Shown in pieces: positions 9,934 to 57,287 of a stretch of DNA of 64,000 bases; position 1 is the first letter of the stretch; each line of letters begins with the position of its first letter. Source of the DNA: Bacteroidales bacterium (lineage in GTDB: Bacteria > Bacteroidota > Bacteroidia > Bacteroidales > P3); NCBI GenBank assembly GCA_017480785.1, contig JAFURZ010000013.1, positions 1-64,000 on the forward strand, read 5' to 3'. Below the pieces are notes generated by a model. The model was given only the letters and a program-made list of their open reading frames with translations. It was not told the DNA's origin and did no database searches. Both the position numbers and the translations under genes were made by a program.

Positions 9934-10042
9934 CCTCCGCCATTTTTACGGTAGTATTACGCTAGTATTACGGTAGTATTACGCTTTAAAAGCGTAATAC
10001 TACCGTAATACTAGCGTAATACTACCGTAAAAATGGCGGAGG
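9934..10042. repeat. 109-bp perfect palindrome, copy 1
   Basis: Two 54-base arms mirror each other exactly around a single central A at 9988. From the outside in, each arm has CCTCCGCC, ATTTTT, three 11-bp units of ACGGTAGTATT type, then ACGCTTT. In this copy the middle unit reads ACGCTAGTATT, and the matching base is changed in the other arm too, so pairing is kept. Copies 2 and 3 lie at 36474-36582 and 57179-57287. No flanking target-site duplication is obvious. Confidence 0.95.
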
Positions 10043-10167
10043 TGACCGGAGGAAAAAACGCCGCAGGCGGCACGCCGGACAGGGGTATATATTTTTTTTA
10101 CTGCATCAATATAATATTTGGCGTGCATGTGCGTTATGGGGAGAAAAACAAATACAATACAGGAAAG

Positions 10168-10764
10168 ATGAAGAAGACCGGAATCATTATCGCAGTGGTG
10201 GCCGTGGTGGCCGTCATCGTGCTGTGGGGCATCAATGTGAACAACCGTCTGGTGACCGCCGACGAGAATGTGCAGAAAGCCTGGAGCCAGGTGGAGAACG
10301 TGTACAAGCGCCGCATGGACCTGGTGCCGCAGCTGGTGGCGACGGTGCAGGGCGCCGCCGACTATGAGCGGAGCGTGCTGACCGAGGTGACCAATGCGCG
10401 CGCCGGCGTGGAGCAGACGCAGGTGGACCCCTCGCAGCTGAGCGAGGAGCAAATCAAGGCCTATCAGCAGGCACAGGACCGTCTGAGCAAGGCGGTGGCC
10501 AACACCATCAAGGTGACGGTGGAGCGCTATCCCGAGCTGACGGCCACGCAGGGCTTCCGCGACCTGCAGACGCAACTGGAGGGCACGGAGAACCGCATCA
10601 CGGTGGAGCGCGGCAAGTTCAACGAGGCCGTGCAGGGCTACAACACCATGCTGCGCCGCTTCCCGAACAGCATCATCGCCGGCATGGCCGGATTTGAGAA
10701 GAAGGGCTATTTCTCGGCCCCCGAGGAGGCCTCGGAGCCGGTGAAGGTGGAGTTCAATTTCTGA
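10168..10764 (+). CDS. lemA: LemA family protein
   Basis: A 198-residue protein with one N-terminal membrane segment (GIIIAVVAVVAVIVLWGI) followed by a helical LemA domain. Typical stretches are VQKAWSQVENVYKRR, DLVPQLVATV and YNTMLRRFP. LemA proteins are membrane-anchored with a helical soluble part; their biochemical role is not settled. The ATG at 10168 is chosen because the membrane segment follows directly; a longer frame from 10033 would begin inside the palindrome. The TPM-domain gene follows 30 bp downstream, a common pairing that suggests joint function in envelope quality control. Confidence 0.93.
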   Translation: MKKTGIIIAVVAVVAVIVLWGINVNNRLVTADENVQKAWSQVENVYKRRMDLVPQLVATVQGAADYERSVLTEVTNARAGVEQTQVDPSQLSEEQIKAYQQAQDRLSKAVANTIKVTVERYPELTATQGFRDLQTQLEGTENRITVERGKFNEAVQGYNTMLRRFPNSIIAGMAGFEKKGYFSAPEEASEPVKVEFNF

Positions 10765-10794
10765 CAAGTAGTCAAGTAGACAGTAGTTAAGTAG

Positions 10795-11565
10795 ATGAGA
10801 CACATGCTTCGGTTGAAACACATCGCCCTGTTGTTGCTGCTGGCCTTGCCGCTGGCGGCTGACGCACAGTGGCTGCCCGAGCGGAGCGACCGGCTCGTCA
10901 ACGACTACTCACAGATACTCAGCGAGCAGCAGCGCGAGACGCTGGAGCGCCGTCTGGTTGCCTTCAACGATTCGACGTCGAACCAGATACTCGTCGTCAT
11001 CACCCCCACCCTCGGCGGCGACGACGAGGACGCTGTGGCCCAGCGCATCGGACAGACCTGGGGCGTGGGACAGGCGGAGTTCGACAACGGGGTGGTGATA
11101 CTCATCAAGAGCAAGACCGCCGAGGAGAACTGGGGCGCCGTGGCCATCGCCACGGGCTACGGCGTCGAGGGGGCGCTGCCCGACCACTTCTGCAAGCGCA
11201 TCATCGACGACTGCATGCTCGACCGGCTGGGCGAGGGCAACTACTACCTGGCCCTGACGGCGGCACTCGACGTGATGGAGCCGGTGCTGGCCGGCGAATA
11301 CAGCTATGCGCAGTACCGGCAGGACGAACGGCGCAAGGGGCTGATTGCGTTGGGGGTATTCGTGCTCTTCATCGCGGTGGTCATCGTCCTGGTGGCCATC
11401 CATGCCAAACGCCATCCGGAACAATGGCACAACGGCGGCACGGGAGGCTTCTTCTATGGCGGCGGTGGCAGCCGCGGCGGCTTCGGGGGCTTCTCCGGAG
11501 GCGGCGGCTTCGGAGGTTTCGGCGGCGGCAGCTTCGGCGGCGGTGGCGCCTCCGGTAGATTTTGA
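10795..11565 (+). CDS. TPM-domain (YgcG family) membrane protein with Gly-rich tail
   Basis: A 256-residue protein with a signal peptide ending near ADAQ, a TPM domain (LVNDYSQILSEQQRETLE, then NQILVVITPTLGG, and ATGYGVEGALPD), a membrane segment around residues 183-203 (LIALGVFVLFIAVVIVLVAI) and a C-terminal tail made almost wholly of Gly, Ser and Phe. TPM domains sit outside the cytoplasmic membrane; some have phosphatase activity or assist photosystem repair, but the role here is unknown. The gene lies just after lemA, separated by short AAGTAG repeats, and is probably cotranscribed. An in-frame ATG at 10804 is an alternative start. Confidence 0.88.
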   Translation: MRHMLRLKHIALLLLLALPLAADAQWLPERSDRLVNDYSQILSEQQRETLERRLVAFNDSTSNQILVVITPTLGGDDEDAVAQRIGQTWGVGQAEFDNGVVILIKSKTAEENWGAVAIATGYGVEGALPDHFCKRIIDDCMLDRLGEGNYYLALTAALDVMEPVLAGEYSYAQYRQDERRKGLIALGVFVLFIAVVIVLVAIHAKRHPEQWHNGGTGGFFYGGGGSRGGFGGFSGGGGFGGFGGGSFGGGGASGRF

Positions 11566-11622
11566 CAGTCAGGGTCCAAGGACTGAAACCGGAGAATTGG
11601 TAGTGCAAAAAAGCATATTTTT

Positions 11623-12401: not shown

Positions 12402-14119
12402 ACTGTCCCCAGACGGGGTGTGCGCGGTAGGCCTCGAGGGCTTCGGCGGGCACCTGTAGCACCGCCGAGGCCGGCATACCGAGGAATGTGGCATCCATCG
12501 CTTCTGGCGGCTGCGCCGCCAGAAGCCGTACCGTTGCCAGTTGCACACAATCCACAAAAGCATAGTTGCCGACACTCCGCACACACGGCCCTAGGTCGAT
12601 GGTGCGCAGCGAGCGGTCGTAGGCAAAGGCGTAGGTGCCCACCTCCAGCAGCGAGTCGGGGAATACGAGGTGACGGATGTTCGTCTCGTAGAAAGCGGCG
12701 TGGTCGAGCTTGCGGAGCGAAGGTGGGAAGACCACGCTGTCGAGCGACGAGTTGCGGGCGAAGACATCGCGGTCGACCGTCTGCAGGCCATCGGCGAAGA
12801 CTACGGTGTGCGTATATCCCGCCGCGTTGAACAGGTAGGGAGAGAGGCGTCGCACATTGGGGGCGATGTAGATGCGGGAGAGGCTGTAGTCGCGGTCGAA
12901 GAGGGCACGAATCGTCCCTACCTCTTCATACCGGCACGAGTCGGCCTTCCACACCACAGCGGCCAGGCGCGGGCAGTCGTTGAAGGCGCCGCCACCGATG
13001 CTGCGCAAGGTAGTGGGGACCACCAGGGTGTCGCACAGGGAGGCACACTCGGCGAAAGCCTCGTATCCAATGCGGCGCAGTCCCTCGGGCAGGCACAGCG
13101 CACCGAGGCTGTCCCGGCGGTAGAAGGCGTGGTCGTCGATTTCCACCACTCGGTAGGGCAGTCCCCGGTGACGCAAGGTGGCAGGGATGGCCATGTCGCC
13201 CCGCAGCGGCTCGCCGGGAGCGGGGCCCGTCAGGGCCACTTCGCGCTGCGGGAAGTGCTGCAGCACACGGTAGGCCACCGTCTGCCCACTGTCGAGCACG
13301 GCGCTGTAGCGACGTTCTGTAGGTATCATCGCCAGCACCGCCAGTGTCGCCACCACTGCCACGGCCACCAGCCACCACGGGAACCGCGGCCGCATCAGGC
13401 GGCGAAGGGCAGTCACCGACGACGGGCGACGGGCGGGGTCCGTGCGGGTCGCCCGGCGTACTGCACGACGGTAACAATGAGGGGAAAGCATCTGCACCAA
13501 GCGCCCCAACGCATAGATGTCGGCCCGGTGGTCTACCTTGGACCCATCCGTCTGCTCCGGGGCGGCAAAACCCGCGCTGCCGGCGTTCTGCTTGAAGGCG
13601 GCATACTGCGGACCGTCGCTCAAGCCGAAGTCTATCAGCTTCACACGGCCGTCAGTCGTGACCAGGATATTGGATGGCTTGAGGTCGTGGTGATAAACGC
13701 CATGGCGGTGGCAGTAGTCCACAGCGTCAAAGAGTTGTTCCAACACCCGGCGGGCCTCTTTGTTGCTCCCCACCCGGCCCTCTTCGCTGCCTAATGGGAC
13801 ACCCTCCACCCACTCCATCACAATGCAACGGCCCACCACGGCATCGTCTTCGAGGCTCTCCACTCGGACAATGTTAGGGTGGTCAAGGCTCACCCCGATG
13901 CTGTACTCCTTGTAGAGCCACCCTTTCGTAGAAAGGGTTGTCACGGAACTCCTCGCGCAGCCCTTTGAGTACGTACCACCGGCCGTAACGGCGGGCACGA
14001 TACAGCACATGGGTGGCACCGCGCCCCACTTCCTCATAAGATGAGAAGAAAGGCTCGGTGATGCCGGCACCGCCCGACACCAAGCCCGACGGGCCGTCGT
14101 TAATCACCCCAGCCATCAC
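12376..14119 (-). pseudogene. Receptor-like Ser/Thr kinase with BspA LRR domain, frameshifted
   Basis: One extra G in the GGG run near 13917 splits the gene; removing it gives a continuous 580-residue protein. The first part carries the glycine loop GRGATHV (about residues 32-38) and Lys52 in WYVLKGL. After the shift come LYKEYSIG, HHDLKPSN (143-150, with His instead of Arg in HRD), DFG (163-165) and APE (176-178). One membrane segment follows (PWWLVAVAVVATLAVLAMI, about 247-265), then a C-terminal domain of BspA-type LRRs such as IDDHAFYRRDSLGALCLPEG. The expected topology is a cytosolic kinase with a periplasmic sensor. The start is GTG at 14119 or ATG at 14116. The shift may be an assembly error, since both parts are well conserved. 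Its 3' end overlaps the NUDIX gene. Confidence 0.8.
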
Positions 14120-19197: not shown

Positions 19198-21879
19198 ATG
19201 CAACAGCGACAATTCGACCCGTGGCAGCGGGAGGCGATAGCCATCAGCGGCGGGCGGCACCTGGTGCTGGCACCGCCGGGGTGCGGCAAGACCGACATCC
19301 TGACCGAGCGGGTGGTGCACGCCCACGTGAACGGCATGGACTACGGCGACATGCTCTGCCTCACCTTCACCAACCGTGCCGCCAAGGGGATGGCGCAACG
19401 CATCGCCGACCGCACAGGCAACCCCGTGCCGGACGACCTCTTCGTGGGCAACATACACCGCTACTGCTCACAGATGCTTTTCAACCAGGGACTGGTGAAC
19501 CACAACAGCGCCATCATCGACGAGGGCGACGTGGAGAACATCATACAGGAGGAACTCTGCAAACGCCTGAAGATACAGAGCCGCACCACCGAGTTGATGC
19601 GCTACCAGCACGCCCTGTGGCAGCTCACCCTGGGCATGCGCGGCGACATCATCCTGCACGGCGACCTGCTGCATACCGGCGCCATGACCAAGCTGTGCGA
19701 TGTGCTGGGACTGCCTGCCGACGAGGAGAGCCTGGGCACCGTCTATGCCAACATCGAGCGCTATCTGGAGCGCTACAGCACCATCCACGAGTTGCCCGCC
19801 GCAAACACCATGCGGCTGGCCCGCGCCTACCAGCAATACAAGACCGACAACGACCTGCTCGACTACGACGACCTGCTGGTGCTGGCCTACCAGCATTTAG
19901 TGGGTAGTGGGCAGTGGGTAGTGGATAGCAGTCTGGGGCAAACGCTACCCACTACCCACTATCCACTACCCACTAAAAAATATTCCTGGATAGAGGTGGA
20001 CGAAGTGCAGGACCTCAACGCGCTGCAACTGGCATTGGTCGACCTTCTGGCCAAACCCGACGCCACCATCGTCTACCTGGGAGACGAGCAGCAGGCCATC
20101 TTCTCCTTCATCGGAGCCAAGCTGGAAACACTCGAGACCCTCAAGCAACGGTGCACGCTGCACCACATGCACACCAACTACCGTTCGCCGCGCTACCTGC
20201 TCGACCTGCAGAACGACTATGCCGTGTGCAACCTCGGCATACGCCGCGACATGCTGCCCACGACCGACGACACCACGGCGGCGCAGCCCTCGGACCTCTG
20301 CCTGCTCGATGTAGGCGACGCCACCCTCGAGGCCTACTATGCCGCCCGCTTTGCCAAGCGCTATGGGGAGATGACCCCCGACGGCAAGGTGGCCATTCTC
20401 GTCAGCACCAACCGCGAGGCCGACGATGTGGGCGACACCATGTCCGCCATGGGTATTCCACACTTTAAAATCAGCGGCACCGACCTCTTCTCGCTGCCCG
20501 CCATCAGACTGCTGCTGGCCCACCTCAGCGTGCTCACCGACGAGACCGTCTTCATTGCCTGGGCCCGCTTGCTTTGGGGCTTCAAGCTCACCCCCACCTA
20601 CACCGCCGCCCGTGCCCTGATGCGCGACATGCGGCGTGTGGCCATGCTGCCTTCCGACTTCCTGCTCTACCCCGACGGGGGCTCCTATCTGCAAGCATTC
20701 GTCCGCGCCTACAACAACGAGGAGCTCATCATCTTCGACACCGAGACCACCGGCCTCGACCCACGCACCGACGACATCATACAGATTGCCGCCATCCGCG
20801 TGAGGCAGGGGAAACCGGTGGGCAAGGCATTCAACATCATACTGGAGACCGACCGCGAGCTGCCGGCCACCGTCGGTGGCAAGCCGAACCCCATGCTGGA
20901 GGTGTACCGCACCAGCCGCCGGCATCCGCGGGCCGAAGGGCTGCGGATGTTCATGGACTACTGCCGCGGCAAAGTGCTCGTAGGCCACAACGTGGAGTAC
21001 GACTACCAGATACTGGACCACAACCTGCGCCGCGACTGCCCGGAGCTGCCGCTTGCCGAGCTCTGTCCCCGCCATCTCGACACGCTGAAGTACATACGGC
21101 TCGTCCGCCCGCGCCTGCGCAACTACAAGCTGGGGCACCTGCTTGACGTGTTGCACCTCGAGGGCACCAACAGCCATCAGGCGGACGACGACATCATGGC
21201 CACCCTCTCGCTGCTGACCTTCTGCCACACCTGCGCCCTGCCGCTCGTGGCGACCCAGCAGCATTTTCTGGACGAGCACGCAAAGCTGGCGGAGAAGTTC
21301 CGCCAATGCTATTCGGGCCTCTACCACCACGGCCTGCAGGCGGCCCATCAGCCGGCCACCGGCCCATCGCCCGCCCTCGTGGAGGAGTTGCAGTACGCCT
21401 ACGACCACCTGCTGGCCACCCACCTGACCGAGCCCGTCGAGAAGTGGCGTCATCTGTGCCATTACCTCGAGGCCGACCTCATACGGGCCGACCTCTACCC
21501 CACCCTGCGCACCCAGCTGGACCGCTATGTCACCGACCTCTGCACCCTCAAGGAGGCCGACCTCTGCAGCGGCTCGCTCGAGGAGCGCTACATCATCTCC
21601 ACCGTGCACAAGGCCAAGGGGCTGGAGTTCGACACCGTCATCGTGTACCGCGCCATCGACGGCAGCTACCCCGCCAGCCACAGCTGGACCGAACGGCAGA
21701 TACAGGAAGACGCCCGCCGCCTCTTTGTGGCCCTTTCACGCTCGCGCCGCCACCTCTGCGTCATCACCGACAGCTACTACGGCCGCACACCACACGTCCT
21801 CAGCCCGTTCCTCGACAAGGTGCGCTCCCATTTCACCCTCTACCACCGCACCCCCGACGGGAAGATACGCGAGGGCTGA
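19198..21879 (+). CDS. UvrD/Rep-type SF1 helicase with internal DEDDh 3'-5' exonuclease
   Basis: An 893-residue protein. Helicase motifs in order: Q-motif region, Walker A APPGCGKTD (Lys31), DYDDLL, motif II VDEVQD (about 267), motif III GDEQQAIFSFIGA, motif IV NYRSP, and late in the protein STVHKAKGLEFDTVIV (about 800) and FVALSRSRRHL. Between them, at about residues 510-680, sits a DnaQ-like exonuclease: FDTETTGLD, VGHNVEYDYQ and HQADDDIMA supply the DEDD residues. It probably unwinds and trims DNA during repair. Residues 233-260 are encoded by a palindromic insert (19896-19977) placed just before motif II. I chose ATG 19198 over 19165, which would overlap the ATPase gene. Confidence 0.88.
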   Translation: MQQRQFDPWQREAIAISGGRHLVLAPPGCGKTDILTERVVHAHVNGMDYGDMLCLTFTNRAAKGMAQRIADRTGNPVPDDLFVGNIHRYCSQMLFNQGLVNHNSAIIDEGDVENIIQEELCKRLKIQSRTTELMRYQHALWQLTLGMRGDIILHGDLLHTGAMTKLCDVLGLPADEESLGTVYANIERYLERYSTIHELPAANTMRLARAYQQYKTDNDLLDYDDLLVLAYQHLVGSGQWVVDSSLGQTLPTTHYPLPTKKYSWIEVDEVQDLNALQLALVDLLAKPDATIVYLGDEQQAIFSFIGAKLETLETLKQRCTLHHMHTNYRSPRYLLDLQNDYAVCNLGIRRDMLPTTDDTTAAQPSDLCLLDVGDATLEAYYAARFAKRYGEMTPDGKVAILVSTNREADDVGDTMSAMGIPHFKISGTDLFSLPAIRLLLAHLSVLTDETVFIAWARLLWGFKLTPTYTAARALMRDMRRVAMLPSDFLLYPDGGSYLQAFVRAYNNEELIIFDTETTGLDPRTDDIIQIAAIRVRQGKPVGKAFNIILETDRELPATVGGKPNPMLEVYRTSRRHPRAEGLRMFMDYCRGKVLVGHNVEYDYQILDHNLRRDCPELPLAELCPRHLDTLKYIRLVRPRLRNYKLGHLLDVLHLEGTNSHQADDDIMATLSLLTFCHTCALPLVATQQHFLDEHAKLAEKFRQCYSGLYHHGLQAAHQPATGPSPALVEELQYAYDHLLATHLTEPVEKWRHLCHYLEADLIRADLYPTLRTQLDRYVTDLCTLKEADLCSGSLEERYIISTVHKAKGLEFDTVIVYRAIDGSYPASHSWTERQIQEDARRLFVALSRSRRHLCVITDSYYGRTPHVLSPFLDKVRSHFTLYHRTPDGKIREG
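19896..19977 (+). repeat. Palindromic element inserted in the helicase reading frame
   Basis: Two 34-base arms (19896-19929, 19944-19977), rich in GTGGGTAGTGG and its complement, pair with three mismatches around a 14-base loop. The element is translated as about 27 residues (from GSGQWVVDSS to YPLPTKK), a length not expected between QHL and the conserved YSWIEVDEVQD of the helicase. Confidence 0.8.
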
Positions 21880-23789: not shown

Positions 23790-23805
23790 CCACCCCCTCC
23801 TCCCC

Positions 23806-23858
23806 TCCGTAACAACTCCGTAACAACTCCGTAACAACTCCGACACAACTCCGAGGAT
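23806..23858. repeat. 11-bp tandem repeat
   Basis: TCCGTAACAAC is repeated three times, then once as TCCGACACAAC, then partially. The 11-bp period equals that of the units in the 109-bp palindromes. Confidence 0.75.
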
Positions 23859-24056
23859 GGTCCGACAGCAGTCGGACCTAACTCGTTGATAACACGTTTT
23901 TAACCCGGACTTGAGACGACTCCGAGGCGGTTTTCGCTGGAAATCAACCACATCCGTTTTTCACCCTCTTCCGGCGGCATTCCGCGCCACAGTCCCTGCA
24001 TCAGGTGCCGCAAATGCTAAAAAAACTTAATTATATCGCGCACGACCTATTATTAT

Positions 24057-34624: not shown

Positions 34625-36352
34625 CTATTTGACAACCACCCGCTCGGTCTTGATGCCCAGGTTGGTGATGATGCGGACGGTGTAGAGGCCCGCCGGCAGC
34701 GGGCGGATGTCGATGGTGCGGCAGTCGTCGTTGCACCGGCGCGAGAAGACACACACACCGCTGACGTTGTAGACCTCCACCTGCGTGATGCCGTCGGCCT
34801 CCAGGTTCAGCTCGCCGTCGGTGGGGTTGGGATAGACCTCGAGCTGGGCTTCCACCTCCTGCTGTTCGATGCCGTTCGTGCGGGGCCGCACCTCCACATA
34901 CACGTCTGTCGTGTCGGTATGGCCACGTGCGTCGGCCACCGACACGCGGTAGTTGCGGCTCTCCGTGATGGTCGCCGTGCTGTACTGCTGGTAGGGGAAG
35001 TCGATATCCGTCTCGGGGTCCCAGTGGAAGGTGAAGGGCGGGTGCTGACCGATGGCCAATTCCACGCCCACCTGCTTGCAGGTGTCGTAGGCCACGATGG
35101 TGTCGCGCCGCAGGCGCACCACGTCGTCCTCGGCCAGGATGTAGCGTATCGTGTCGTAGGTCCTCAGTGCCGGGTAGCTGGTGCACAACGCCGTGCTGAG
35201 GTACAGCTCGATGAGCTTCGGCTCGCTCAGGTCGGCCGTCGCCGTGCCGCGGAAGGTGAGCGAATGGGCGCCCGTGTTGATGTTGAAGGAAGGATGCAGG
35301 GCGCTCAGCGAGACACCGCTGTCGGTGACCACCGTGTAGTCCTCGCCCACCACGGCATTGCCGCCGAACTGCACCGCCACCATTCCCTGGCTGTAGACGC
35401 TGCCCGCCAAGGTCAGCGGCAGCACCTTGGGGATGCTGCGCTCGATGGTGTCGGCATCGCGGTGCGACAGGTTCACCTCGGCCGACGGGCTGTTGAAGCT
35501 CTTCTTCTCCAGCAACACACCGCTGTCAAGAGTGCCATCACCCACATTGCAGATGGAAATGTGCATGTGATACTGCGTGCAGGGCACAAGGGTGGCATTG
35601 GCCGAGAGCTTCTGCGTGAAACCGTCGTACTGCACCCCCGTGCTGTAGTTGTTGACCACATAGAACTGCGAGAAACGGGAGGTGCACCCCGGCGTGCTAG
35701 AGGTGTCGCTGGGGTCATTGTCATGTCCGTTGTTCACCGTGTTGATACCCACCGTGATGCCATTGGGGTTGGCCGTACTCACCGAGTGGGGCACGATGGC
35801 GATGTTCTTGGTCACCGTGGCTCCCGTCGCAGGGTCGGGCCCCGTCACAAGGAAGGCAAAAATATCATTGTATGATGAGCACACCCACTCGGGATACTCT
35901 TCCGAGGCGAAACAATAGTTCAACGTAACATAGGGCGAGATGCTTACGAAGTCAAAATCAATTGTGGAGCATGTCGTCACCGACTGTCCCGAGGGCAAGT
36001 AGGTATTCAACTGCGTATCCTCATAAGCCCCCGACACAGTAGTGTAAGCGCCAGTCAAGTTGTTCGGACCCGGAGCCACGCTGATGTTGCCTGTGGTCAT
36101 CACCACCCCAGAGTCCATCTGCAGATGGAGGAAACCGTTGCTCTGGAAAGTGCCTATCATCGGCTTGCTGATGTTTCCCGTCTGGTTGCCGTACTTCACA
36201 TTGGTCACATACACTCCCTGCCCGATGAGGTTGTCCTGCACAAAAGTGGTTATGTTCTGCCCCACCGCCGAGCTCACACTGATATTTTGCGCCGCCGCAG
36301 CCCACGACACCACCAGTGTGCACACCAAAACAACACGTCTAAGTTTATACAT
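34625..36352 (-). CDS. Choice-of-anchor L protein with T9SS type A sorting domain
   Basis: A 575-residue protein with a signal peptide (VVLVCTLVVSWAAAAQ), a choice-of-anchor L domain (NITTFVQDNLIGQGVYVTNV, then FLHLQMDSGVVMTTGNISV and YCFASEEYPEWV) over about residues 22-300, a beta-sandwich linker and a T9SS type A sorting domain at the end (VYPNPTDGELNLEADG, VEVYNVSGVCV, LPAGLYTVRI). It is exported by T9SS and probably anchored at the surface; its binding target is unknown. The S74-like gene starts 25 bp downstream. In the ancestral order this gene probably sat directly upstream of hutU. Confidence 0.9.
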   Translation of the reverse strand: MYKLRRVVLVCTLVVSWAAAAQNISVSSAVGQNITTFVQDNLIGQGVYVTNVKYGNQTGNISKPMIGTFQSNGFLHLQMDSGVVMTTGNISVAPGPNNLTGAYTTVSGAYEDTQLNTYLPSGQSVTTCSTIDFDFVSISPYVTLNYCFASEEYPEWVCSSYNDIFAFLVTGPDPATGATVTKNIAIVPHSVSTANPNGITVGINTVNNGHDNDPSDTSSTPGCTSRFSQFYVVNNYSTGVQYDGFTQKLSANATLVPCTQYHMHISICNVGDGTLDSGVLLEKKSFNSPSAEVNLSHRDADTIERSIPKVLPLTLAGSVYSQGMVAVQFGGNAVVGEDYTVVTDSGVSLSALHPSFNINTGAHSLTFRGTATADLSEPKLIELYLSTALCTSYPALRTYDTIRYILAEDDVVRLRRDTIVAYDTCKQVGVELAIGQHPPFTFHWDPETDIDFPYQQYSTATITESRNYRVSVADARGHTDTTDVYVEVRPRTNGIEQQEVEAQLEVYPNPTDGELNLEADGITQVEVYNVSGVCVFSRRCNDDCRTIDIRPLPAGLYTVRIITNLGIKTERVVVK

Positions 36353-36415: not shown

Positions 36416-36423
36416 CAAAGATA
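36416..36423 (-). promoter_or_regulatory. -7 element upstream of the choice-of-anchor L gene
   Basis: On the minus strand TATCTTTG matches the consensus, 64 bp before the start; no good TTTG lies 19 bases upstream. It sits between the gene and palindrome copy 2. Confidence 0.5.
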
Positions 36424-36473: not shown

Positions 36474-36582
36474 CCTCCGCCATTTTTACGGTAGTATTAC
36501 GGTAGTATTACGGTAGTATTACGCTTTAAAAGCGTAATACTACCGTAATACTACCGTAATACTACCGTAAAAATGGCGGAGG
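36474..36582. repeat. 109-bp perfect palindrome, copy 2
   Basis: Identical over all 109 bases to copy 3. Arms of 54 bases flank a central A at 36528, each with CCTCCGCC, ATTTTT and three ACGGTAGTATT units. It lies between the end of the subtilase gene (36594) and the start of the next minus-strand gene, so it is transcribed as a long hairpin if the subtilase transcript reads through. Confidence 0.95.
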
Positions 36583-36593
36583 AAGTAGGGGGT

Positions 36594-38906
36594 CTAGAGG
36601 AGGAGTTGCACGCCGATTTCGAGGCGCGGCAGGAGGACCTGTCCGGCGGGGACAGGCTGCCCGATGCCGTTGAGGCGGTAGCGGGCGTAGAGGCCCAGCA
36701 GGTCGTAGGTGAGGCGGGTGGTGACGCCCCAGTTCCAGCGGTAGCCGTCCAGCATGTCGAGGCCGTAGACTTTCTGCATGCGCGACGAGGCGATGTCGCC
36801 CTCGTGGGAGCCGCGGAGCTTGTAGATGCTGTAGCCCCAGTTGCCATAGACGCCGAGGTCCCAGTGCAGGCCCTTGTGCATCATGCCGGCGGGAAGGAAG
36901 CGGACGCGCTGGAAGAGTTCGATGCCGAGCTCGCCGATGTTGACGCTGTGGCGGGAGACCTTCTTGTCGAGCCAGCGCACATCGTCGTCCATGGCGGCCA
37001 GGGAGTCGAGGTGGTTGGCCGCGCTGCCGAAGCGGAACGAGGTGTGGCCGTATTCCACGGCCAGCCCTATGCCGTAGGCCTTGGTGAAATGGTGCTGCCA
37101 ACGGGCGCCGATGCGCTTGGCGGGCGACCAGGGGTTGCACTGCATGGCCTCCTTGTCGAGGCCGAAGCTCAGGGGCAGGCCGAACATGAGGTAGACGTCC
37201 CACTCGGAGCGGCGCTCGCGGGCGATGTCCTGGCGCGGGGCACGGACGAGGGCGTCGTAGGTGCCGATGTGGAAGTCGCGCTCGGTGCTGCGGACCGCGG
37301 ACCACTCGGTCTTGTCGGCCACCTGGGTGGAGCGCTCGAAGCGGTAGTCGCCCATCTGGCCGCCGGAGTAGACGACGAGGTGGTTGCCGCCGCGGAAGTC
37401 GATGCTCACCGAGGTGTCGACATGGGCCAGGGAGCGCTTGCCGTAGGTGAGTATGCGGCCGTTGTCGTCGACGTCCTTGTAGAAGATGTGCACGTTGCTG
37501 TCGGGGTGGGTGAAGATGACGCTGACCGAGGTGGGGCCTTGGGGCTCAAAGCGGAACCGCGTCCCCGCGGCGGGGACTTCTTTTTTGTCTCCCACAAAGT
37601 AGCTGGCCTGGGGCACGCCGTAGCCGAAGGCGTAGTCGCAGTAGGGGTAGAGGTCACCCGATTGCTGCAGCAGGGAGAAGAGTTCCATGTTGGTCTTGCC
37701 CTTGGAGGCCTGCCAGGCACAGGCGGCGAAGCCGGCCACCAGGGGGCAGGAGAAGGAGGTGCCGTAGACCATGTCGTAGGCCTTGTTGTTCTTGGGCGAG
37801 GCGGCCCAGGCGTGGCCGAAGGCGCAGAGGTTGGGCTTCTGGCGCCCGTCGGCGCTGGGGCCGAAGGAGGCGAAGGAGATGTGCTCGTAGTCGGTGAGGG
37901 AGTGGGTGATGCCGCCGATGCAGAGCACGCTGTCGGCGTCGGAGGGGGTGATGATGTACTGCCACGAGCGGTCGTCGGCCTCGTTGCCGGCACTGTTCAC
38001 CACCAGCATGCCCTTGCGGGCAGCCAGGTTGGCGGCCCGGGCCACATAGCTCTTGCCGTCCATGTCTTTGGTGTAGTAGCGGTCCTTGCCGTAGCCGAGG
38101 CTGCTGGAGATGATGTTGGCTCCGTTCTTGTCGGCCCACTCCACAGCCTGCATCCACCACACCTCCTCCTGGAAGGGCTCGGGGCCCACTTCGGTGCGGG
38201 CCAGCAGGAACTCGGCGCCGGTGGCCAGTCCGAGGTCCTTGCCGTTCATGCGGCCGGCGATGCAGGAGAGGGTCATGGTTCCGTGCGAGTTCCAGCCGTA
38301 GACGTCCTCCTTGTGGTTGGGGAAGTTCCAGGTCTTGAGGATGCGCTTGCCCTCACGCAGGTGGCGGAAGGCCTCGTGGGTGTTCACCTTGGGGAAGCCC
38401 CCGTCGAAGACGGCGATGCGGATGCCCGTGCCATCGATGCCGGCCTGGCGGAAGAGGTGGCCCTGCATGCGGAGCAGCTGGTCGGTGAGGGTGGTGTCTT
38501 CGAGAGTGGAGAGAGCGTTTTCATCTTTCATCTTTCCACTTTCAACTTGAGCAGGCTGCATGTCGCCACCTATCAGCTGCACGCGGGTCACATAGGGCAG
38601 CGCCTCGATGGCGGCGGCCTGGGCCGGGGTGGCGACCACGCCGATGGCGTTCATCCAGCGGCTCTGTCCCACCTCCTCGGTGGCCAGGGCGTCGACACCC
38701 GCCACATAGGTCTCGTTGAGGGGGTAGTTGGTCTGGTCGTAGAGGTCGGCGCCGCACTGGGCATAGCGGTCCAGGGCCTTGGCATCGAAATAGGAGTAGG
38801 GGTCGAAGGTGGTGCCTGCCTTGTCGGCGAGGAAGACCCACCAGGTCTGTGCCGAGGCACCGGCTACAGCCATCAGGAAACTGAGAATTGCGATGGTCTT
38901 TTTCAT
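36594..38906 (-). CDS. S8 family subtilase with C-terminal barrel-like domain
   Basis: A 770-residue protein with a signal peptide (MKKTIAILSFLMAVAGASAQ). The catalytic triad is Asp168 in IAVFDGGF, His208 in NSHGTMTLS and Ser394 in GTSFSCPLVAG; the oxyanion Asn is in VNSAGNE. N-terminal residues 21-110 look like an inhibitor-type propeptide. The last ~250 residues have alternating aromatic strands (GIGLAVEYGHTSFRFG, LHWDLGVYGNWGYSIYKL, and a strand-like end EIGVQLLL), which suggests an outer-membrane barrel rather than a T9SS domain. Residues ~121-135 (VESGKMKDENALS) derive from a repeat-like purine-rich DNA stretch. A likely function is surface or outer-membrane proteolysis. Confidence 0.87.
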   Translation of the reverse strand: MKKTIAILSFLMAVAGASAQTWWVFLADKAGTTFDPYSYFDAKALDRYAQCGADLYDQTNYPLNETYVAGVDALATEEVGQSRWMNAIGVVATPAQAAAIEALPYVTRVQLIGGDMQPAQVESGKMKDENALSTLEDTTLTDQLLRMQGHLFRQAGIDGTGIRIAVFDGGFPKVNTHEAFRHLREGKRILKTWNFPNHKEDVYGWNSHGTMTLSCIAGRMNGKDLGLATGAEFLLARTEVGPEPFQEEVWWMQAVEWADKNGANIISSSLGYGKDRYYTKDMDGKSYVARAANLAARKGMLVVNSAGNEADDRSWQYIITPSDADSVLCIGGITHSLTDYEHISFASFGPSADGRQKPNLCAFGHAWAASPKNNKAYDMVYGTSFSCPLVAGFAACAWQASKGKTNMELFSLLQQSGDLYPYCDYAFGYGVPQASYFVGDKKEVPAAGTRFRFEPQGPTSVSVIFTHPDSNVHIFYKDVDDNGRILTYGKRSLAHVDTSVSIDFRGGNHLVVYSGGQMGDYRFERSTQVADKTEWSAVRSTERDFHIGTYDALVRAPRQDIARERRSEWDVYLMFGLPLSFGLDKEAMQCNPWSPAKRIGARWQHHFTKAYGIGLAVEYGHTSFRFGSAANHLDSLAAMDDDVRWLDKKVSRHSVNIGELGIELFQRVRFLPAGMMHKGLHWDLGVYGNWGYSIYKLRGSHEGDIASSRMQKVYGLDMLDGYRWNWGVTTRLTYDLLGLYARYRLNGIGQPVPAGQVLLPRLEIGVQLLL

Positions 38907-38914
38907 AATTATGA

Positions 38915-38970
38915 TTTCTGAATTCTAATTTCTAAGTTCTAATTTCTAAATTCTAATTTCTAAGTTCTAA
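38915..38970. repeat. 14-bp tandem repeat, four copies
   Basis: Units of TTTCTAAGTTCTAA and TTTCTAAATTCTAA type alternate over four exact 14-bp periods. The array fills most of the 69 bp between recO and the subtilase start, and so lies where the subtilase leader or promoter should be. Confidence 0.9.
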
Positions 38971-43421: not shown

Positions 43422-44251
43422 TCTTCATTTTTCAATTTGCTCAGCAACGACTCCTGCTCCGCACGGAACATGTTGTCGACCACATAGACGTGGTCCAGCT
43501 TGTTGAAATCGGTGGCCAGCCGCACCCGCAGTTTGTACATGCCCATTCCCTTGATGGTGTCGGCCTCGACCACATAGCCCACCGGTATCCCTTCGGGGAA
43601 GTCGTTGGCCAGGCCCGAGGTGACAATGGTGTCACCCTCCACAAACTGGTGGGTCGTCGGCACGTCGAGCACCTGCGCATAGCGGAAGTCCTTGCCGTCC
43701 CACACCAGCGAGCCGCTGATGCCCGTACGCTTTACCTTCACACTGTTGCGGCTGTCGCTGTGCAACACCGGCATTACCGTGGCAAAGTTCTCCGTCGTGC
43801 CCACCACCACGCCCACGATGCCGTCGGGCGAGATGACCGCCATGTCGGAGCTCACACCGTGACGGCGGCCTTTGCCTATCATTATGTAGTTATTCTGTCC
43901 GCTCCACGAATTCTTGATGACCGCGGCCTCGGTGTAGTCGTAGCGCTGGCGGTAGACAGTGTCGTTCACGGTGAACATGCTGTCGGTATAGCTGATATAG
44001 CTCTCGGCCAGCCGTTCGCGCAGACGTGCGTTCTCGGCCGCCAGCCGGTCGTTCTCGGCCTTCAGGCCGAAGTAGCCACCCACACTGTGCACCCCCTGAT
44101 ACCATCCGCCCGCAATGCTGTTGGCCCACGACACGATGCGCGACTGCTGGTAGTAGCTCGTACGCACCATCATCACCACCGACGCCACCAGCAACAGCAC
44201 AAAGACCACCACATAGTCGTACTTCTTCAGTATGTCGAACAGCTTATTCAC
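43418..44251 (-). CDS. mreC: Rod shape-determining protein MreC
   Basis: A 277-residue inner-membrane protein: one membrane segment (VVVFVLLLVASVVMMV, about 14-29), a coiled coil (LAAENARLRERLAESY) and the periplasmic MreC beta domain (GVSSDMAVISPDGIVGVVVG, then VEGDTIVTSGLANDFPEGIP). It links MreB filaments to the wall synthases. MreB itself is not in the window. It overlaps the TraB/GumN gene by ATGA. Confidence 0.95.
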   Translation of the reverse strand: MNKLFDILKKYDYVVVFVLLLVASVVMMVRTSYYQQSRIVSWANSIAGGWYQGVHSVGGYFGLKAENDRLAAENARLRERLAESYISYTDSMFTVNDTVYRQRYDYTEAAVIKNSWSGQNNYIMIGKGRRHGVSSDMAVISPDGIVGVVVGTTENFATVMPVLHSDSRNSVKVKRTGISGSLVWDGKDFRYAQVLDVPTTHQFVEGDTIVTSGLANDFPEGIPVGYVVEADTIKGMGMYKLRVRLATDFNKLDHVYVVDNMFRAEQESLLSKLKNEE

Positions 44252-44305
44252 CCTTAAAACCTTTATAACCTATAAAACCTCTTAAACCTTTAAAACCTCT
44301 TAAAC
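44252..44305. repeat. AAACCT-type short tandem repeats, downstream of gmk
   Basis: Irregular units of TTTAAAACCTC and TTAAACC type fill the space between gmk and mreC and run into the 3' end of gmk: its last two codons and stop (GAGGTTTAA on the minus strand) are one repeat unit. A second cluster lies at 44888-44932, on the other side of gmk. Confidence 0.7.
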
Positions 44306-44890
44306 CTCCAAAAAACTCTCTATCACCCGGCGGGTCTCCTGCACGGCACGCTGCAGGTCGTCGTTCACAATGGTCACGTCGAAGAGGGGGGCTTCCTCCA
44401 GTTCCTTGGCGCTGCGGGCCAACCGTTTGCTTATCGACTCCTCGCTGTCGGTGCCGCGACTGCGCAGGCGCTGTTCCAGCACCTCCACGCTGGGCGGCAT
44501 CACAAAGATGCTCAACGCATCGGCCCCGAAGTAGCGCTTGATGTTGCGGCCGCCGTTCACATCCACGTCGAACACCGCCACACGTCCTTCGGCCCACAGC
44601 CGCTCCACCTCGCTCTTCAGTGTCCCGTAGCAGGTGCCCTCGTACACCTCCTCCCACTCCAGGAAGTCGCCCGCCGCCACGCGCGCCTTGAATTCGTCGG
44701 CACTCAGGTAGTAGTAGTCCTTGCCGTCCACCTCGCCCACCCGCGGGGCGCGCGAAGTGGCCGAGATACTGAAGGCCAAGTCGGCCGGATTGAACCGCTC
44801 CGTGGGGGCTCCGGCCATCAGCTCTTTGATGATGGTCGTCTTGCCGCATCCCGAGGGAGCCGAGAAAAGTATTGCCTTGCCCATAGTCAT
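44300..44890 (-). CDS. gmk: Guanylate kinase
   Basis: A 196-residue enzyme that phosphorylates GMP to GDP with ATP. The P-loop is SAPSGCGKTTI (about 10-20); the GMP site is visible in FSISATSRAPRVGEVDGKDY; then FLEWEEVYEGTCYGT follows. The start may be ATG 44890 or 44884. Clusters of AAACCT repeats flank the gene on both sides and supply its stop codon. Confidence 0.95.
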   Translation of the reverse strand: MTMGKAILFSAPSGCGKTTIIKELMAGAPTERFNPADLAFSISATSRAPRVGEVDGKDYYYLSADEFKARVAAGDFLEWEEVYEGTCYGTLKSEVERLWAEGRVAVFDVDVNGGRNIKRYFGADALSIFVMPPSVEVLEQRLRSRGTDSEESISKRLARSAKELEEAPLFDVTIVNDDLQRAVQETRRVIESFLEV

Positions 44891-44932: not shown

Positions 44933-45868
44933 TCAGAACTTCTTGTCGAACACCTTGTAGAACTCCTGCACCGTGGCGGAGGCGTCGTCCCACTTCTGCT
45001 GTGCCGCCACCCCACGCACATACTCCATCGCCTCGTCGCGCGAGGCCATGGCGTTGAGGCTCATAATAAAGTCGTTGTAGGCCTTCATGTTGTTGTGGAA
45101 GAGCTCGCTCATAAAGCTGAACTTGTCGTTGATGTTGATTACCGTGCGCAGGTCATCCACCTTGCGCTCGAGGCTCGAGGTCTGGGGACGGTCGGCGACG
45201 AGCGACTCACCCAGCGTGCGCTGTGCCGGCTGACCCAGGTAGTCCAGCAGCGAAACCTGGCCGACAGAGTCGCCACTGGCAGCCTCACCCCCGTCCTCTC
45301 TCCGATTGGAGAGGGGTGTAGATACCTCTTGCTTCCCACTCCCCTCTCCAACCGGAGAGGGGTCGGGGGTGAGGCTGTCAATAATCACCTCGTCGAAGAG
45401 GAGGGCGTTGTCGTTCTGCTCCAGCTCCTCCATCGGCGGCATCGGCTCAGGAGTAGGCTCGGGGAGAGCCTCACCCCCGTCCCCTCTCCGATTGGAGAGG
45501 GGGGTGGAGACCTCTTGCTCCTTACTCCCCTCTCCAATCGGAGAGGGGTCGGGGGTGAGGCTGTCCTGCTCGGGCTGCATGGCTGCGATAGTCAGCACCT
45601 TGGCCATATCGTCAGCCTCTCCCCCGGCAGCCTCACCCTCACCCCCTATCCGATTGGAGAGGGGAGTAAACACCCCTTGCATTTCACTCCCTTCTCCAAC
45701 CGGAGAAGGGCCGGGGATGAGGCTGTTAGCCACCTCATAGAGGCTCCGCAGGTTCTCCAGCAGCAGGTCGATATCGATTCTGTGCGGCGACGCACTCTGC
45801 ACTACACGATTGGCCACGGCACACAGGCGCTGCATGCCCTCCGTCAACTCTTTCACATGGTTTTTCAT
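44933..45868 (-). CDS. Unknown conserved protein carrying three in-frame palindromic elements
   Basis: A 311-residue cytoplasmic protein. The N-terminus (MKNHVKELTEGMQRLCAVAN) and C-terminus (KVDDLRTVININDKFSFMSE, then NNMKAYNDFIMSLNAMASRD) look helical and conserved; I do not recognise the family but the C-terminal part has the look of a common Bacteroidales hypothetical. About 96 residues in the middle are three inserts of about 32 residues each (49-80, 103-134, 165-196) of the form SLTPDPSPIGEG, variable, then STPLSNRRGDGGEA, encoded by 92-bp palindromic elements. The remaining linker is acidic and Pro-rich, so the inserts probably sit in a disordered region. It lies upstream of gmk. Confidence 0.8.
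   Translation of the reverse strand: MKNHVKELTEGMQRLCAVANRVVQSASPHRIDIDLLLENLRSLYEVANSLIPGPSPVGEGSEMQGVFTPLSNRIGGEGEAAGGEADDMAKVLTIAAMQPEQDSLTPDPSPIGEGSKEQEVSTPLSNRRGDGGEALPEPTPEPMPPMEELEQNDNALLFDEVIIDSLTPDPSPVGEGSGKQEVSTPLSNRREDGGEAASGDSVGQVSLLDYLGQPAQRTLGESLVADRPQTSSLERKVDDLRTVININDKFSFMSELFHNNMKAYNDFIMSLNAMASRDEAMEYVRGVAAQQKWDDASATVQEFYKVFDKKF
45283..45374. repeat. 92-bp palindromic element, copy A
   Basis: CCTCACCCCCG at one end and CGGGGGTGAGG at the other, with inner hairpins built on CTCTCCGATTGGAGAG and CTCTCCAACCGGAGAG. It is translated in frame on the minus strand. Confidence 0.93.
45469..45560. repeat. 92-bp palindromic element, copy B
   Basis: Same ends and same inner hairpins as copy A, with about 10 differences mostly in the middle loop. 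It begins 186 bp from copy A, a multiple of three, and shares the same reading frame. Confidence 0.93.
45631..45722. repeat. 92-bp palindromic element, copy C
   Basis: The most diverged of the three: CCTCACCCTCACCCCC at one end and GGGGATGAGG at the other. The hairpin cores ATCCGATTGGA and TCCAACCGGA remain. It begins 162 bp from copy B, in the same reading frame. Confidence 0.9.
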
Positions 45869-55384: not shown

Positions 55385-55419
55385 CCACCACACCAACCAC
55401 CTAAAACCACTCACAGAAA

Positions 55420-56637
55420 ATGCCTAAAATCAGCAATAAAGGACTTGACTTGCCGCAGAGTGCCATCCGCAAGCTCGTCCCCTTCGCCGACGCCGCCAAG
55501 GAACGTGGCGTGCACGTCTATCACCTCAACATCGGTCAACCCGACATTGAGACCCCCAAGGGTGCCCTCGCCGCACTGGCCGACAAAGCCCGTGAGTTGC
55601 CCGACAGCAAAGGCGTGCTGGAGTACAGCCACTCGGCCGGCATCCCCACCTACCGCCGCGCCCTCTGCAACTACTACCATCGCCACGGCATCGACGTCAC
55701 GCCGAACCAGATTATCGTCACCACCGGTGGCAGCGAGGCCCTCCAGATGGCCTTCACCGTATGCCTCAACCCGGGCGACGAAATCATCATCCCCGAACCC
55801 TACTACACCAACTACAACACCTTCGCCAAGCTCTGCGACGCCAAAATCGTCACCATCCCCAGCGACATCAAGACCGGCTTTGCCCTGCCCCCCATCGAGG
55901 ACTTCGAGAAGGTCATCACCCCCCGCACCAAAGCCATTATGATTTGCAACCCCAACAACCCCACGGGTTACCTCTACACCCATGAGGAGCTGCTGAAGGT
56001 GGCCGGCCTGGTCAAAAAGTACGACCTCTACCTCTTTGCCGACGAGGTCTACCGCGAGTTCTGCTACGACGGCGAGAAGCACTTCAGCGTCATGCAGCTC
56101 GAGGGCTTGGAGCGCAACACCATCCTCTTCGACTCGGTCTCGAAGCGCTACAGCGCCTGCGGCGCCCGCGTGGGATGTATGGTGACCCGCAACAGCGAAG
56201 TCTACGCCATCGCCATGCGTCTGGCACAGGCCCGCCTCTCGCCCCCCTCGTTCGGACAGATATTCGCCGAAGCCGCCGTCAACACCCCGCAGGAGTACTT
56301 CGACAAGGTGCAGGCCGAATACGTCGCCCGCCGCAACGTCGTCGTCGAGGGCGTGAACAGGATTCCCGGCTGCTTCTGCCCCATGCCCAAAGGCGCCTTC
56401 TACACCGTCATCGACCTCCCCATCGACGACAGCGACCACTTCTGCCAGTGGCTGCTGACCGATTTCCAGTACGAAGGAGCCACCGTCATGCTGGCCCCCG
56501 CCACCGGCTTCTACAGCGACCCCGAGAAAGGACGCCATCAGGCACGCATCACCTACTGCATCTGCATCGAAGACCTCAAGAAAGCCATGCGCTGCCTCGA
56601 AGAGGCCCTCAAAGTCTATCCCGGACGCACTAGATGA
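55420..56637 (+). CDS. PLP-dependent aminotransferase, class I
   Basis: A 405-residue enzyme of the fold-type I aspartate aminotransferase family. Visible motifs: NIGQPDIETP at the substrate site, TTGGSEALQMAF in the cofactor loop, NPNNPTG, FADEVYREF with the Asp that contacts the pyridine ring, and the PLP lysine in FDSVSKRYS. Activity on aspartate or an aromatic amino acid is possible; the substrate is not predictable. It overlaps the next gene by ATGA. Confidence 0.93.
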   Translation: MPKISNKGLDLPQSAIRKLVPFADAAKERGVHVYHLNIGQPDIETPKGALAALADKARELPDSKGVLEYSHSAGIPTYRRALCNYYHRHGIDVTPNQIIVTTGGSEALQMAFTVCLNPGDEIIIPEPYYTNYNTFAKLCDAKIVTIPSDIKTGFALPPIEDFEKVITPRTKAIMICNPNNPTGYLYTHEELLKVAGLVKKYDLYLFADEVYREFCYDGEKHFSVMQLEGLERNTILFDSVSKRYSACGARVGCMVTRNSEVYAIAMRLAQARLSPPSFGQIFAEAAVNTPQEYFDKVQAEYVARRNVVVEGVNRIPGCFCPMPKGAFYTVIDLPIDDSDHFCQWLLTDFQYEGATVMLAPATGFYSDPEKGRHQARITYCICIEDLKKAMRCLEEALKVYPGRTR

Positions 56638-57086
56638 GCCGCGAAGAACAACGCCAACAAGTGATATGCTCCTGCATCCAACAGCAGGAGCATATTGCTT
56701 ACGTGGCCAAGCAGGAGATGGACTCGGCCCAGCAACAAAGCAACGACTACGGTGCCAACGTGGACCGCTATGACTCCTACCGCACCAAGATGCTCCGCTC
56801 GCGCGACATGTACGCCCGCCAGCTGGCCACCGCCCAGGCGGGCATCCGCGTACTGCAGGACCTGCTGCGGCTCCCACCCTTCGACACCGTCGAACACGGC
56901 GCCTGCGTCGTCACCGACCGCCAGCGCTTCTTCCTCTCCATCGGCGCCGGCAAATTCATGGTCGGAAACCAAGTCTACTTCGCCATCAGCGCCCAGACAC
57001 CCATCTACGCTGCCCTCAAGGGGCTCCACGTCGGCGACAGCCTCGTCTTCAACGGGCAGCCACAGACCGTCAGGGAGATTTTCTGA
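56634..57086 (+). CDS. GreA/GreB-like C-terminal domain protein
   Basis: A 150-residue protein: helical N-terminal coiled coil (QQQEHIAYVAKQEMDSAQQQ and MYARQLATAQAGIRVLQDLL) followed by a GreA/B-type FKBP-like domain (GACVVTDRQRFFLSIGAGKF, then SAQTPIYAALKGLHVGDSLV). Related Bacteroidetes proteins are sometimes misnamed. A role in transcript cleavage by RNA polymerase is inferred, but the acidic tip residues that stimulate cleavage were not established. It overlaps the aminotransferase gene by ATGA and lies upstream of palindrome copy 3. Confidence 0.75.
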   Translation: MSREEQRQQVICSCIQQQEHIAYVAKQEMDSAQQQSNDYGANVDRYDSYRTKMLRSRDMYARQLATAQAGIRVLQDLLRLPPFDTVEHGACVVTDRQRFFLSIGAGKFMVGNQVYFAISAQTPIYAALKGLHVGDSLVFNGQPQTVREIF

Positions 57087-57178
57087 CCCAGGCACCTCCT
57101 TTCTATCGTTTCAACCCTTTTTTGGCCTCCAATATAAGGCCATTTTCGGCATATTTGCCTGACGTTTTCCCTGGGTTT

Positions 57179-57287
57179 CCTCCGCCATTTTTACGGTAGT
57201 ATTACGGTAGTATTACGGTAGTATTACGCTTTAAAAGCGTAATACTACCGTAATACTACCGTAATACTACCGTAAAAATGGCGGAGG
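57179..57287. repeat. 109-bp perfect palindrome, copy 3
   Basis: Identical over all 109 bases to copy 2. It lies between two convergent genes (ends at 57086 and 57320), 93 and 33 bp from their stops, so it could terminate both. Central A at 57233. Confidence 0.95.

What the first reader, a model, noticed from the sequence alone, without database searches (positions are those of the whole stretch)
9934..57287. Three intergenic copies of a 109-bp perfect palindrome with internal 11-bp units
Copies at 9934-10042, 36474-36582 and 57179-57287 have equal length, exact 54-base arms and the same architecture: CCTCCGCC ends, then three ACGGTAGTATT units, then ACGCTTT-A-AAAGCGT. Copies 2 and 3 are identical base for base though 20.7 kb apart. 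No coding capacity is seen and no target-site duplication, so an autonomous transposon or ordinary terminator does not explain it. Possibilities: a non-autonomous mobile palindrome (MITE or REP/BIME-like), a conserved structural or protein-binding element, or a bidirectional terminator.
Basis: seen in the sequence. Interest (0 to 1): 0.78.

Follow-up and report, generated by a model that had tools for sequence, protein, structure and literature searches.

The report
Palindromic 11-bp arrays near promoters
A gut Bacteroidales genome carries dozens of near-identical 109-base DNA palindromes built from 11-base units, mostly outside promoters of core genes, and relatives show the same 11-base format with different letters.

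Summary
They belong to a family with 45 centres in this 2.25-Mb genome. In 40 aligned copies the inner arms barely vary, and the main differences are symmetric (T-A/A-T at pair 14, G-C/C-G at pairs 18 and 29). A second, composite class shares arms and ends (24 places). The exact unit was not found in other species, but the format recurs in the genus: arrays, some palindromic, of other 11-mers. In 744 kb of seven genus genomes lag 11 gives 44 stretches, lag 10 three, lag 12 four (lag 7: 32); other families 0 in 260 kb. Element gaps: 22 divergent, 20 tandem, 2 convergent. On 42 of 57 start-facing sides a -7-type box lies between element and gene. In G135, 26 of 42 divergent gaps hold an array. 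RAYT and Rho readings were tested and not supported. Best reading: an amplified palindromic member of a class of helically phased elements upstream of promoters. A role in promoter topology or insulation is inference; a host-neutral mobile palindrome is a serious rival.

The parts
9934..10042 (.). 109-bp palindrome copy 1 (symmetric C variant in the second unit), between divergent genes (2974-aa ORF on -, lemA on +)
9889..9933 (-). outward G-rich flank of copy 1 on the left (read on the minus strand: AAGTGGGGGGCGGGAAGGGCGG...)
   Evidence: extent taken from the family average
10043..10087 (+). outward flank of copy 1 on the right (TGACCGGAGGAAAA...)
   Evidence: extent taken from the family average
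36474..36582 (.). 109-bp palindrome copy 2, between tandem minus-strand genes: 11 bp after the stop of 36594-38906 and 121 bp upstream of the start of 34625-36352
36416..36423 (-). -7-type box TATCTTTG between copy 2 and the gene 34625-36352 (-)
   Evidence: meaning of the motif recalled
36583..36600 (+). outward G-rich flank of copy 2 (AAGTAGGGGGTCTAGAGG), running into the end of the neighbouring ORF
57179..57287 (.). 109-bp palindrome copy 3, identical to copy 2, between convergent genes (stop of + ORF at 57086, stop of - ORF at 57320); one of 2 convergent cases among 44 element gaps
57288..57318 (+). outward G-rich flank of copy 3 (ATGTGGGGGGACCGGGGACGGGTGTCCGGGG)
23791..23865 (.). related element with other units: one-sided 11-bp array (CTCCGTAACAA) 45 bp after a called gene end
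   Evidence: a CTCCG-type palindromic relative in G137
642..691 (.). related short imperfect palindrome of other 11-mers (TGTTCTATTGC / TGTTCAATTGA)

Best explanation
The palindrome is the currently amplified member of a class of intergenic DNA elements of this genus whose shared trait is an 11-bp period, not a sequence. SHOWN: each copy has two arrays of 11-mers running outward from a central dyad, followed on average by a G-rich, 11-bp-phased tail; sampled copies lie between genes, mostly outside promoter-type boxes, and are over-represented in divergent gaps. INFERRED from shared symmetric and asymmetric variants and from mosaics of arms and ends: elements multiply by copying and recombine (transposition or gene conversion, enzyme unknown). 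INFERRED mechanism: it works as DNA. Repeats set one turn of underwound helix apart put GC-rich patches on one face, and the dyad can extrude as a cruciform. Upstream of transcribing genes, where negative supercoils gather, it would absorb or pin supercoils, or seat nucleoid proteins, and so isolate neighbouring promoters.
For: 45 centres, reversed control 0. Inner pairs 11-54 of 40 copies: six pairs vary, with both-sided changes T-A17/A-T17 (6 mismatches) at pair 14, G-C21/C-G15 (4) at 29, G-C37/C-G2 (1) at 18; no G-T pair in the inner arm. Unrelated 11-mer families inside single genomes (own; G135) speak against one sequence-specific binder. Lag-11 stretches 44 in 744 kb of the genus against 3 (lag 10), 4 (lag 12), 0 (lag 13); 0 in 260 kb of 20 other-family genomes; 0 in 110 kb of the sister genus. 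Element gaps 22/20/2 against background bp 2840/8658/1397 in gaps of at least 100 bp, chi-square p 4e-5; G135 gaps of at least 100 bp with an array: divergent 26/42, tandem 27/88, convergent 6/24, p 0.001 and 0.005. TAnnTTTG in 42 of 57 start-facing sides; shuffles 4.7 (maximum 11), reverse complement 3, reversal 11. Flank G clusters of period about 11-11.5, 0 of 5000 shuffles as strong. Of 30 start-facing genes scanned (of 64), 27 have a Pfam match, largely unrelated core functions such as TIM, PFK, EF-G, BipA, TsaD, LemA.
Against: No expression, topology or binding data; the mechanism is inference. Patchy in samples: no lag-11 stretch in 65 kb of G020 or in 40 kb of G116, 40 kb of G143, 20 kb of G110 and 20 kb of G095, so it is unlikely to be essential. 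Position sharing between species is not above what the divergent-gap preference gives (15 of 95 against 14 of 119 divergent controls, p 0.43). High identity plus an empty orthologous gap also fit a recent selfish burst. Other repeat periods are common too: lag 7 gives 32, lag 8 nine, lag 9 eleven stretches beside 44 at lag 11. The own background of divergent gaps is small (8) and taken near elements. 15 of 57 start-facing sides show no box, lemA beside copy 1 among them.
Confidence: 0.45

Rival explanations
1. Host-neutral non-autonomous mobile palindrome (MITE-like): moved by an unidentified enzyme, preferring or tolerated mainly in upstream intergenic DNA.
For: 45 near-identical copies limited to this lineage; one asymmetric centre variant shared by 14 of 40 copies in both orientations; an orthologous gap without the roughly 190-bp element; avoidance of genes and promoter boxes, as selection would leave it.
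Against: No transposase-bearing version seen: one search lists 100 of 197 arm matches; the 11 listed arms that are not part of a full palindrome were all fetched and lie in short composite or degenerate elements; 97 matches were not listed. High-copy G018 and G028 have 0 Y1 matches. One-sided arrays of variable unit number and unrelated units and mosaics of arms and ends do not look like one transposon.
Confidence: 0.3
2. Slippage product: a mutational process that adds 11-nt repeats in intergenic DNA, with arms kept matched by template switching; no function.
For: Unit-number differences between the arms of single copies (L158, L160, L161); intergenic limitation follows from frameshifts; other periods, lag 7 above all, occur too.
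Against: Neighbouring lags should rise as well: lags 9, 10, 12, 13 give 2, 1, 2, 0 against 74 at lag 11 in G135. It does not predict enrichment in divergent over convergent gaps.
Confidence: 0.1
3. Operator array: a regulator with 11-bp protomer spacing (PhoB/OmpR-like, recalled) binds the tandem units.
For: 11-bp direct repeats upstream of promoter boxes; three of the four clearly polymorphic positions (4, 26, 37) share one phase of the unit.
Against: Several unrelated 11-mer families in one genome; flanking genes are not one regulon (30 of 64 genes).
Confidence: 0.08
4. Bidirectional terminator, intrinsic or Rho-dependent (inward strand C-rich with 11-nt spacing).
For: 19 of 24 element-to-stop distances are 4-92 bp; stable hairpin; inward strand C-rich outside the arms.
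Against: Half the gaps are divergent and 2 of 44 convergent; no T-run follows; arrays in G135 tandem gaps are C-rich on the sense strand in 20 and G-rich in 13 of 33, p 0.30.
Confidence: 0.05
5. REP/BIME family moved by a RAYT transposase.
For: Palindromic, intergenic, dispersed; units contain GTAG; the own genome has 3 Y1_Tnp matches.
Against: High-copy G018 and G028 (81 and 97% complete) have 0 Y1_Tnp matches; size, placement and changing unit sequence differ.
Confidence: 0.02

Closest known systems
REP / BIME and CGTC-tagged palindromes
   Same: dispersed intergenic palindromic repeats, tens to hundreds of copies, genome-specific families
   Different: REPs are 20-40 bp, tagged GTAG or CGTC, mainly between tandem and convergent genes (PMC3733652, abstract start and passages); here 109 bp of 11-mers, enriched in divergent gaps, no Y1 transposase needed
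PINSR of Prevotella intermedia
   Same: lineage-specific intergenic repeat of Bacteroidales, 177 and 184 copies in two strains (PMC4755523, abstract and passages)
   Different: 188 bp; nothing in the passages seen describes a palindrome or 11-mers
MITEs
   Same: short, non-coding, terminal inverted repeats, high copy
   Different: no target duplication seen in the one usable empty gap and no partner transposase found
Helically phased A-tracts / curved DNA, 10-11 bp periodicity
   Same: period of one helix turn; a nucleoid role has been proposed (PMC3940949, abstract)
   Different: whole 11-mers of varied sequence repeat, as discrete arrays and palindromes
PhoB-type direct-repeat operators (recalled)
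   Same: 11-bp spaced direct repeats upstream of promoters
   Different: unit sequence is not conserved even within a genome

Membership tests
REP/BIME with RAYT | Y1 (RAYT-type) transposase in genomes that carry the repeats | tested here: not met
   73 of 119 genus genomes match PF01797 (own 3, G089 1, G118 1, G022 1), but high-copy G018 and G028 are listed with 0; G124 does not appear among the matching genomes (119 of 120 were searched, not all non-matching ones are listed)
REP/BIME with RAYT | location mainly tandem/convergent | tested here: not met
   22 divergent, 20 tandem, 2 convergent
REP/BIME with RAYT | 20-40 bp hairpin with GTAG foot outside the stem | tested here: not met
   109 bp; GTAG lies inside the paired units
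MITE | terminal inverted repeats | tested here: met
   the whole element is one inverted repeat
MITE | target-site duplication | tested here: inconclusive
   no shared flanking duplication apparent by eye; one empty orthologous gap, too diverged to define the junction
MITE | related transposase element with the same ends | tested here: inconclusive
   11 listed lone arms are all in short elements, 97 of 197 matches not listed; the genome was not scanned for transposases other than Y1
Intrinsic terminator | T-run after the hairpin | tested here: not met
   G-rich outward flank without a T-run; T about 0.14 in the first 20 bp
Intrinsic terminator | placed at gene ends, frequent between convergent genes | tested here: not met
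   2 of 44 gaps convergent; in tandem gaps it does lie near the stop
Rho (rut) terminator | C-rich sense strand for incoming transcript | tested here: not met
   20 of 33 tandem arrays in G135, p 0.30; for palindromes true by symmetry
Known structured RNA | match to an Rfam family | tested here: not met
   no match in the window at gathering thresholds
Helically phased upstream DNA | period near one helix turn, upstream of promoters | tested here: met
   (promoters by motif only)
Helically phased upstream DNA | measured curvature or promoter effect | not testable with these tools
   needs gels, footprints or reporters

The most novel reading that the evidence does not exclude
A class of promoter-upstream DNA elements defined by a format (11-bp period, outward polarity, G-rich tail, optional perfect dyad) and not by sequence: each lineage keeps inventing, shuffling and homogenising its own 11-mers while format and divergent-gap placement persist, because the element acts through helix phasing and cruciform or plectoneme formation as a topological buffer between promoters.
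Probability: 0.3. Interest if true: 0.88.

Novelty: new variant of a known kind. Interest (0 to 1): 0.72.

Why it matters
Bacterial intergenic repeats are usually defined by sequence. Here period and symmetry recur while the letters turn over, at the place where the twin-domain model (recalled) puts negative supercoils. That makes a testable case for selection on DNA topology, or reveals a new kind of self-spreading palindrome. It also gives a natural system to ask how cells keep long perfect arms matched.

Tried and rejected
RAYT/REP. Rho rut orientation: 13 of 16 tandem arrays looked C-rich on the sense strand when I counted by eye, but 20 of 33 in the larger G135 sample (p 0.30). Rfam. Phage or plasmid origin: no match; IMG/VR 0 for the own 25-mer, 13 hits for a relative's pattern, not examined. 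Conserved insertion positions: 14 of 67 loci, and 15 of 95 upstream genes against 19 of 549 controls, looked strong; with controls limited to genes with at least 150 bp upstream the contrast is 17 of 242 (p 0.02), and against divergent controls 14 of 119 (p 0.43), so I dropped the claim. One search misplaced copy 3 (identical sequence found at copy 2); corrected. One search missed palindromes because those loci were not turned; one search repeated it and stopped with an error after 23 of 30 loci. A draft statement that all arms are joined at a centre was wrong: searches showed the composite class. Literature: searches listed no paper on 11-bp palindromic arrays in Bacteroidales; this covers only the open library with those terms, judged from titles and abstract starts. 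Gene calls are a simple ORF plus GC3 script, so gap types and distances are approximate.
Full report
Observation. The three copies are exact as described: 109 bp, 54 complementary pairs, one central base, copies 2 and 3 identical. As single-stranded DNA copy 2 folds into one hairpin (-63.7 kcal/mol, z -21).

Family. The own genome (G000, 2.25 Mb, 19 contigs, 92% complete) gave 40 scored copies (73 first-look candidates, 40 scored). A centre pattern (up to 2 mismatches) finds 45 places on each strand and 0 for the reversed control. I fetched flanks of the 40 (window), of four more centres and one partial place, L159, and later of a fifth (L439). Thirteen of 40 copies are perfect over all 54 pairs and 21 of 40 over the inner 44. 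In the inner 44 pairs six vary: pair 14 (T-A 17, A-T 17, mismatch 6), 29 (G-C 21, C-G 15, mismatch 4), 18 (G-C 37, C-G 2, mismatch 1), 51 (C-G 26, mismatch 14), and one copy each at 13 and 54; no G-T pair occurs there. The 14 mismatches at pair 51 are one asymmetric centre variant seen in both orientations, which points to copying of whole elements. The outer ten pairs are often asymmetric (CCTCTACC, CCTCTGGG).

Extent. Averaging 80 outward half-elements shows G clusters near positions 60-64, 71-75, 82-86 and at 95, beyond the 54-nt arm. Their period is about 11-11.5; none of 5000 position shuffles reaches the power. Within positions 1-44 the clearly variable positions are 4, 26, 37 (one phase of the unit) and 41. 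Two outer end types occur; 20 of 40 copies have one of each, 7 two of type A, 4 two of type B, 9 an unclassified end.

Composite class. Arm matches outnumber the palindromes (99 and 98 per strand with 2 mismatches; 100 listed). The 11 listed arms that are not in a full palindrome were fetched. They lie in short elements of another layout: the arm ATTTTTACGGTAGTATTACGGT, a slot of about 20 nt, AAAAAGCGTAATACTACCGTAAAAC, a second slot, then GAAAACCCWGAGGATG (two of the 11 loci, L430 and L432, only partly fit). The slots hold 11-mer material of several other families (TTCAACTACAGTTCGACTTG, GTTCTTTTACTGTTCTTTTA, TTCTTCGGCTGTTCTTCGG). The core occurs at 24 places with up to 1 mismatch, reversed control 0; ten were read. 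L159, which I first took for a partial palindrome, is among the 24. These elements share arms and ends with the 109-mers, and the CCTCTGGG ends of some 109-mers resemble their far end. I read this as modular shuffling by recombination (inference).

Relatives. The own sequence gave no match in phages or plasmids, none in 84,980 species at 25 exact bases (the own record may be left out there) and none in IMG/VR. Three of 60 relatives gave diverged hits of 70-79% identity; two of these are palindromes of other 11-mers: TTCTACGGTAC in G022, TTTAACGGTTG in G018. With these as queries, 15 and 22 of 120 genus genomes matched, own included. Of 34 loci fetched from G022, G089, G018, G124, G118 and G028, 26 show a palindrome over the threshold, 71-124 bp long (4 of 6, 8 of 8, 5 of 5, 5 of 6, 1 of 6, 3 of 3). 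G018, G118, G124 and G089 use variants of one CGGTTGTT unit, G022 and G028 others. One pattern family occurs in 13 of 120 genus genomes, own included, and in 2 of 295 order genomes, one of them own.

Format without sequence. A lag scan of 744 kb from seven genus genomes finds 44 stretches at lag 11, against 3 at lag 10, 4 at 12, 0 at 13; lag 7 gives 32, lag 8 nine, lag 9 eleven. In 260 kb from 20 other-family genomes lag 11 gives 0, and 0 in 110 kb of the sister genus. Eight further genus genomes gave 12 stretches in 255 kb, none in four of them. A few of these stretches (parts of G137, G001, G028, and one contig each of G135, G098 and G010) were chosen because of earlier hits or a marker gene; G010 holds masked bases. 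G135 has 74 in 600 kb, with 2, 1, 2 and 0 at lags 9, 10, 12 and 13 and 24 at lag 7. Unit sequences are unrelated even inside one genome (G135: GATGCCTAGAT, GTCATCAGGGA, TTGGTATAGAG and others; own: the palindrome, CTCCGTAACAA at window 23791, TGTTCTATTGC at 642, TTCTTCGGTTG at five places). A single sequence-specific binder is therefore unlikely.

Placement. None of the 40 own copies lies inside a called gene. Element gaps: 22 divergent, 20 tandem, 2 convergent (44 gaps, one of them L159; one copy without a left gene and one not fetched then are left out), against background gaps of at least 100 bp of 8, 41 and 4 (2840, 8658, 1397 bp); chi-square by bp p 4e-5. In the 600-kb sample of G135, arrays occupy 26 of 42 divergent, 27 of 88 tandem and 6 of 24 convergent gaps of at least 100 bp (divergent against tandem p 0.001, against convergent p 0.005); 3 of 74 arrays lay inside called genes and 3 could not be placed. 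Of 64 element-to-start distances 49 are 73-250 bp; of 24 element-to-stop distances 19 are 4-92 bp. On 42 of 57 start-facing sides with at least 54 bp a TAnnTTTG box (the -7 motif of Bacteroidota, recalled) lies between element and start; shuffles give 4.7 on average (maximum 11), reverse complement 3, plain reversal 11. In the window this holds for copy 2 (36416-36423); near copy 1 a box sits at the edge of the left ORF and none before lemA; none at copy 3. Thirty of the 64 start-facing genes were scanned, 27 with a Pfam match, largely unrelated core functions.

Orthologous gaps. Of the own gaps whose flanks matched G135, I read seven: six hold unrelated 11-mer arrays in G135 (L029, L042, L053, L161b; L028, where G135 also has an extra ORF; L159, matched on one side and itself composite) and one (L161a) lacks about 190 bp including the G-rich flank. 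At L045, G135 and G137 have another neighbour gene and no array, G098 a short palindrome. In G137, L019 holds a diverged, imperfect relative with mixed units, L040 a CTCCG-type palindrome. Several one-sided matches were not read. Sharing of places is explained by the preference for divergent gaps.

Mechanism. Shown: family, symmetry, period, placement, lineage-specific units, composites. Inferred: it acts as DNA, since promoter boxes lie outside it on most start-facing sides and half the gaps are divergent, where neither gene would transcribe it. Exactly 11 bp (not 10.5) fits underwound DNA or a protein step of 11 bp; A-form RNA has a similar pitch but needs transcription through the element. 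Divergent gaps gather negative supercoils (twin-domain model, recalled), which favours cruciforms. I rate a topological or insulating DNA element first and a host-neutral mobile palindrome second. No experiment or expression data were available.

Noticed in passing
L428-L438 (G000, 24 places): Composite elements of the same genome: shared arms and ends with two slots filled by 11-mers of other families; inverted parts are in interleaved (X Y X' Y') order, not nested.
   Followed up: partly
window 45262-45726: Three diverged tandem units of 162-186 bp with long inverted repeats (CACCCCCGTCCCCTCTCC...GGAGAGGGG), seemingly inside an open reading frame.
   Followed up: no
window 19896-19977: Hairpin of 7-bp repeats (TAGTGGG); lag-7 stretches are common in the genus (32 in 744 kb).
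   Followed up: partly
window 799-9723: Minus-strand ORF of 2974 aa with many internal repeats next to copy 1.
   Followed up: no
L045:2680-2880: Several other short hairpins (CCCCACACTTCCGTGTGGGG, CGTCTCGAAGAGACG) clustered upstream of a palindrome copy.
   Followed up: no
window 38901-38970 and 44238-44337: AT-rich 14-bp and 9-bp tandem repeats.
   Followed up: no
L422:1805-2023: In G122 a one-sided array of about 19 units of an 11-mer (CACTCCCCTTT type), and a separate 11-mer palindrome at 13660-13776.
   Followed up: partly
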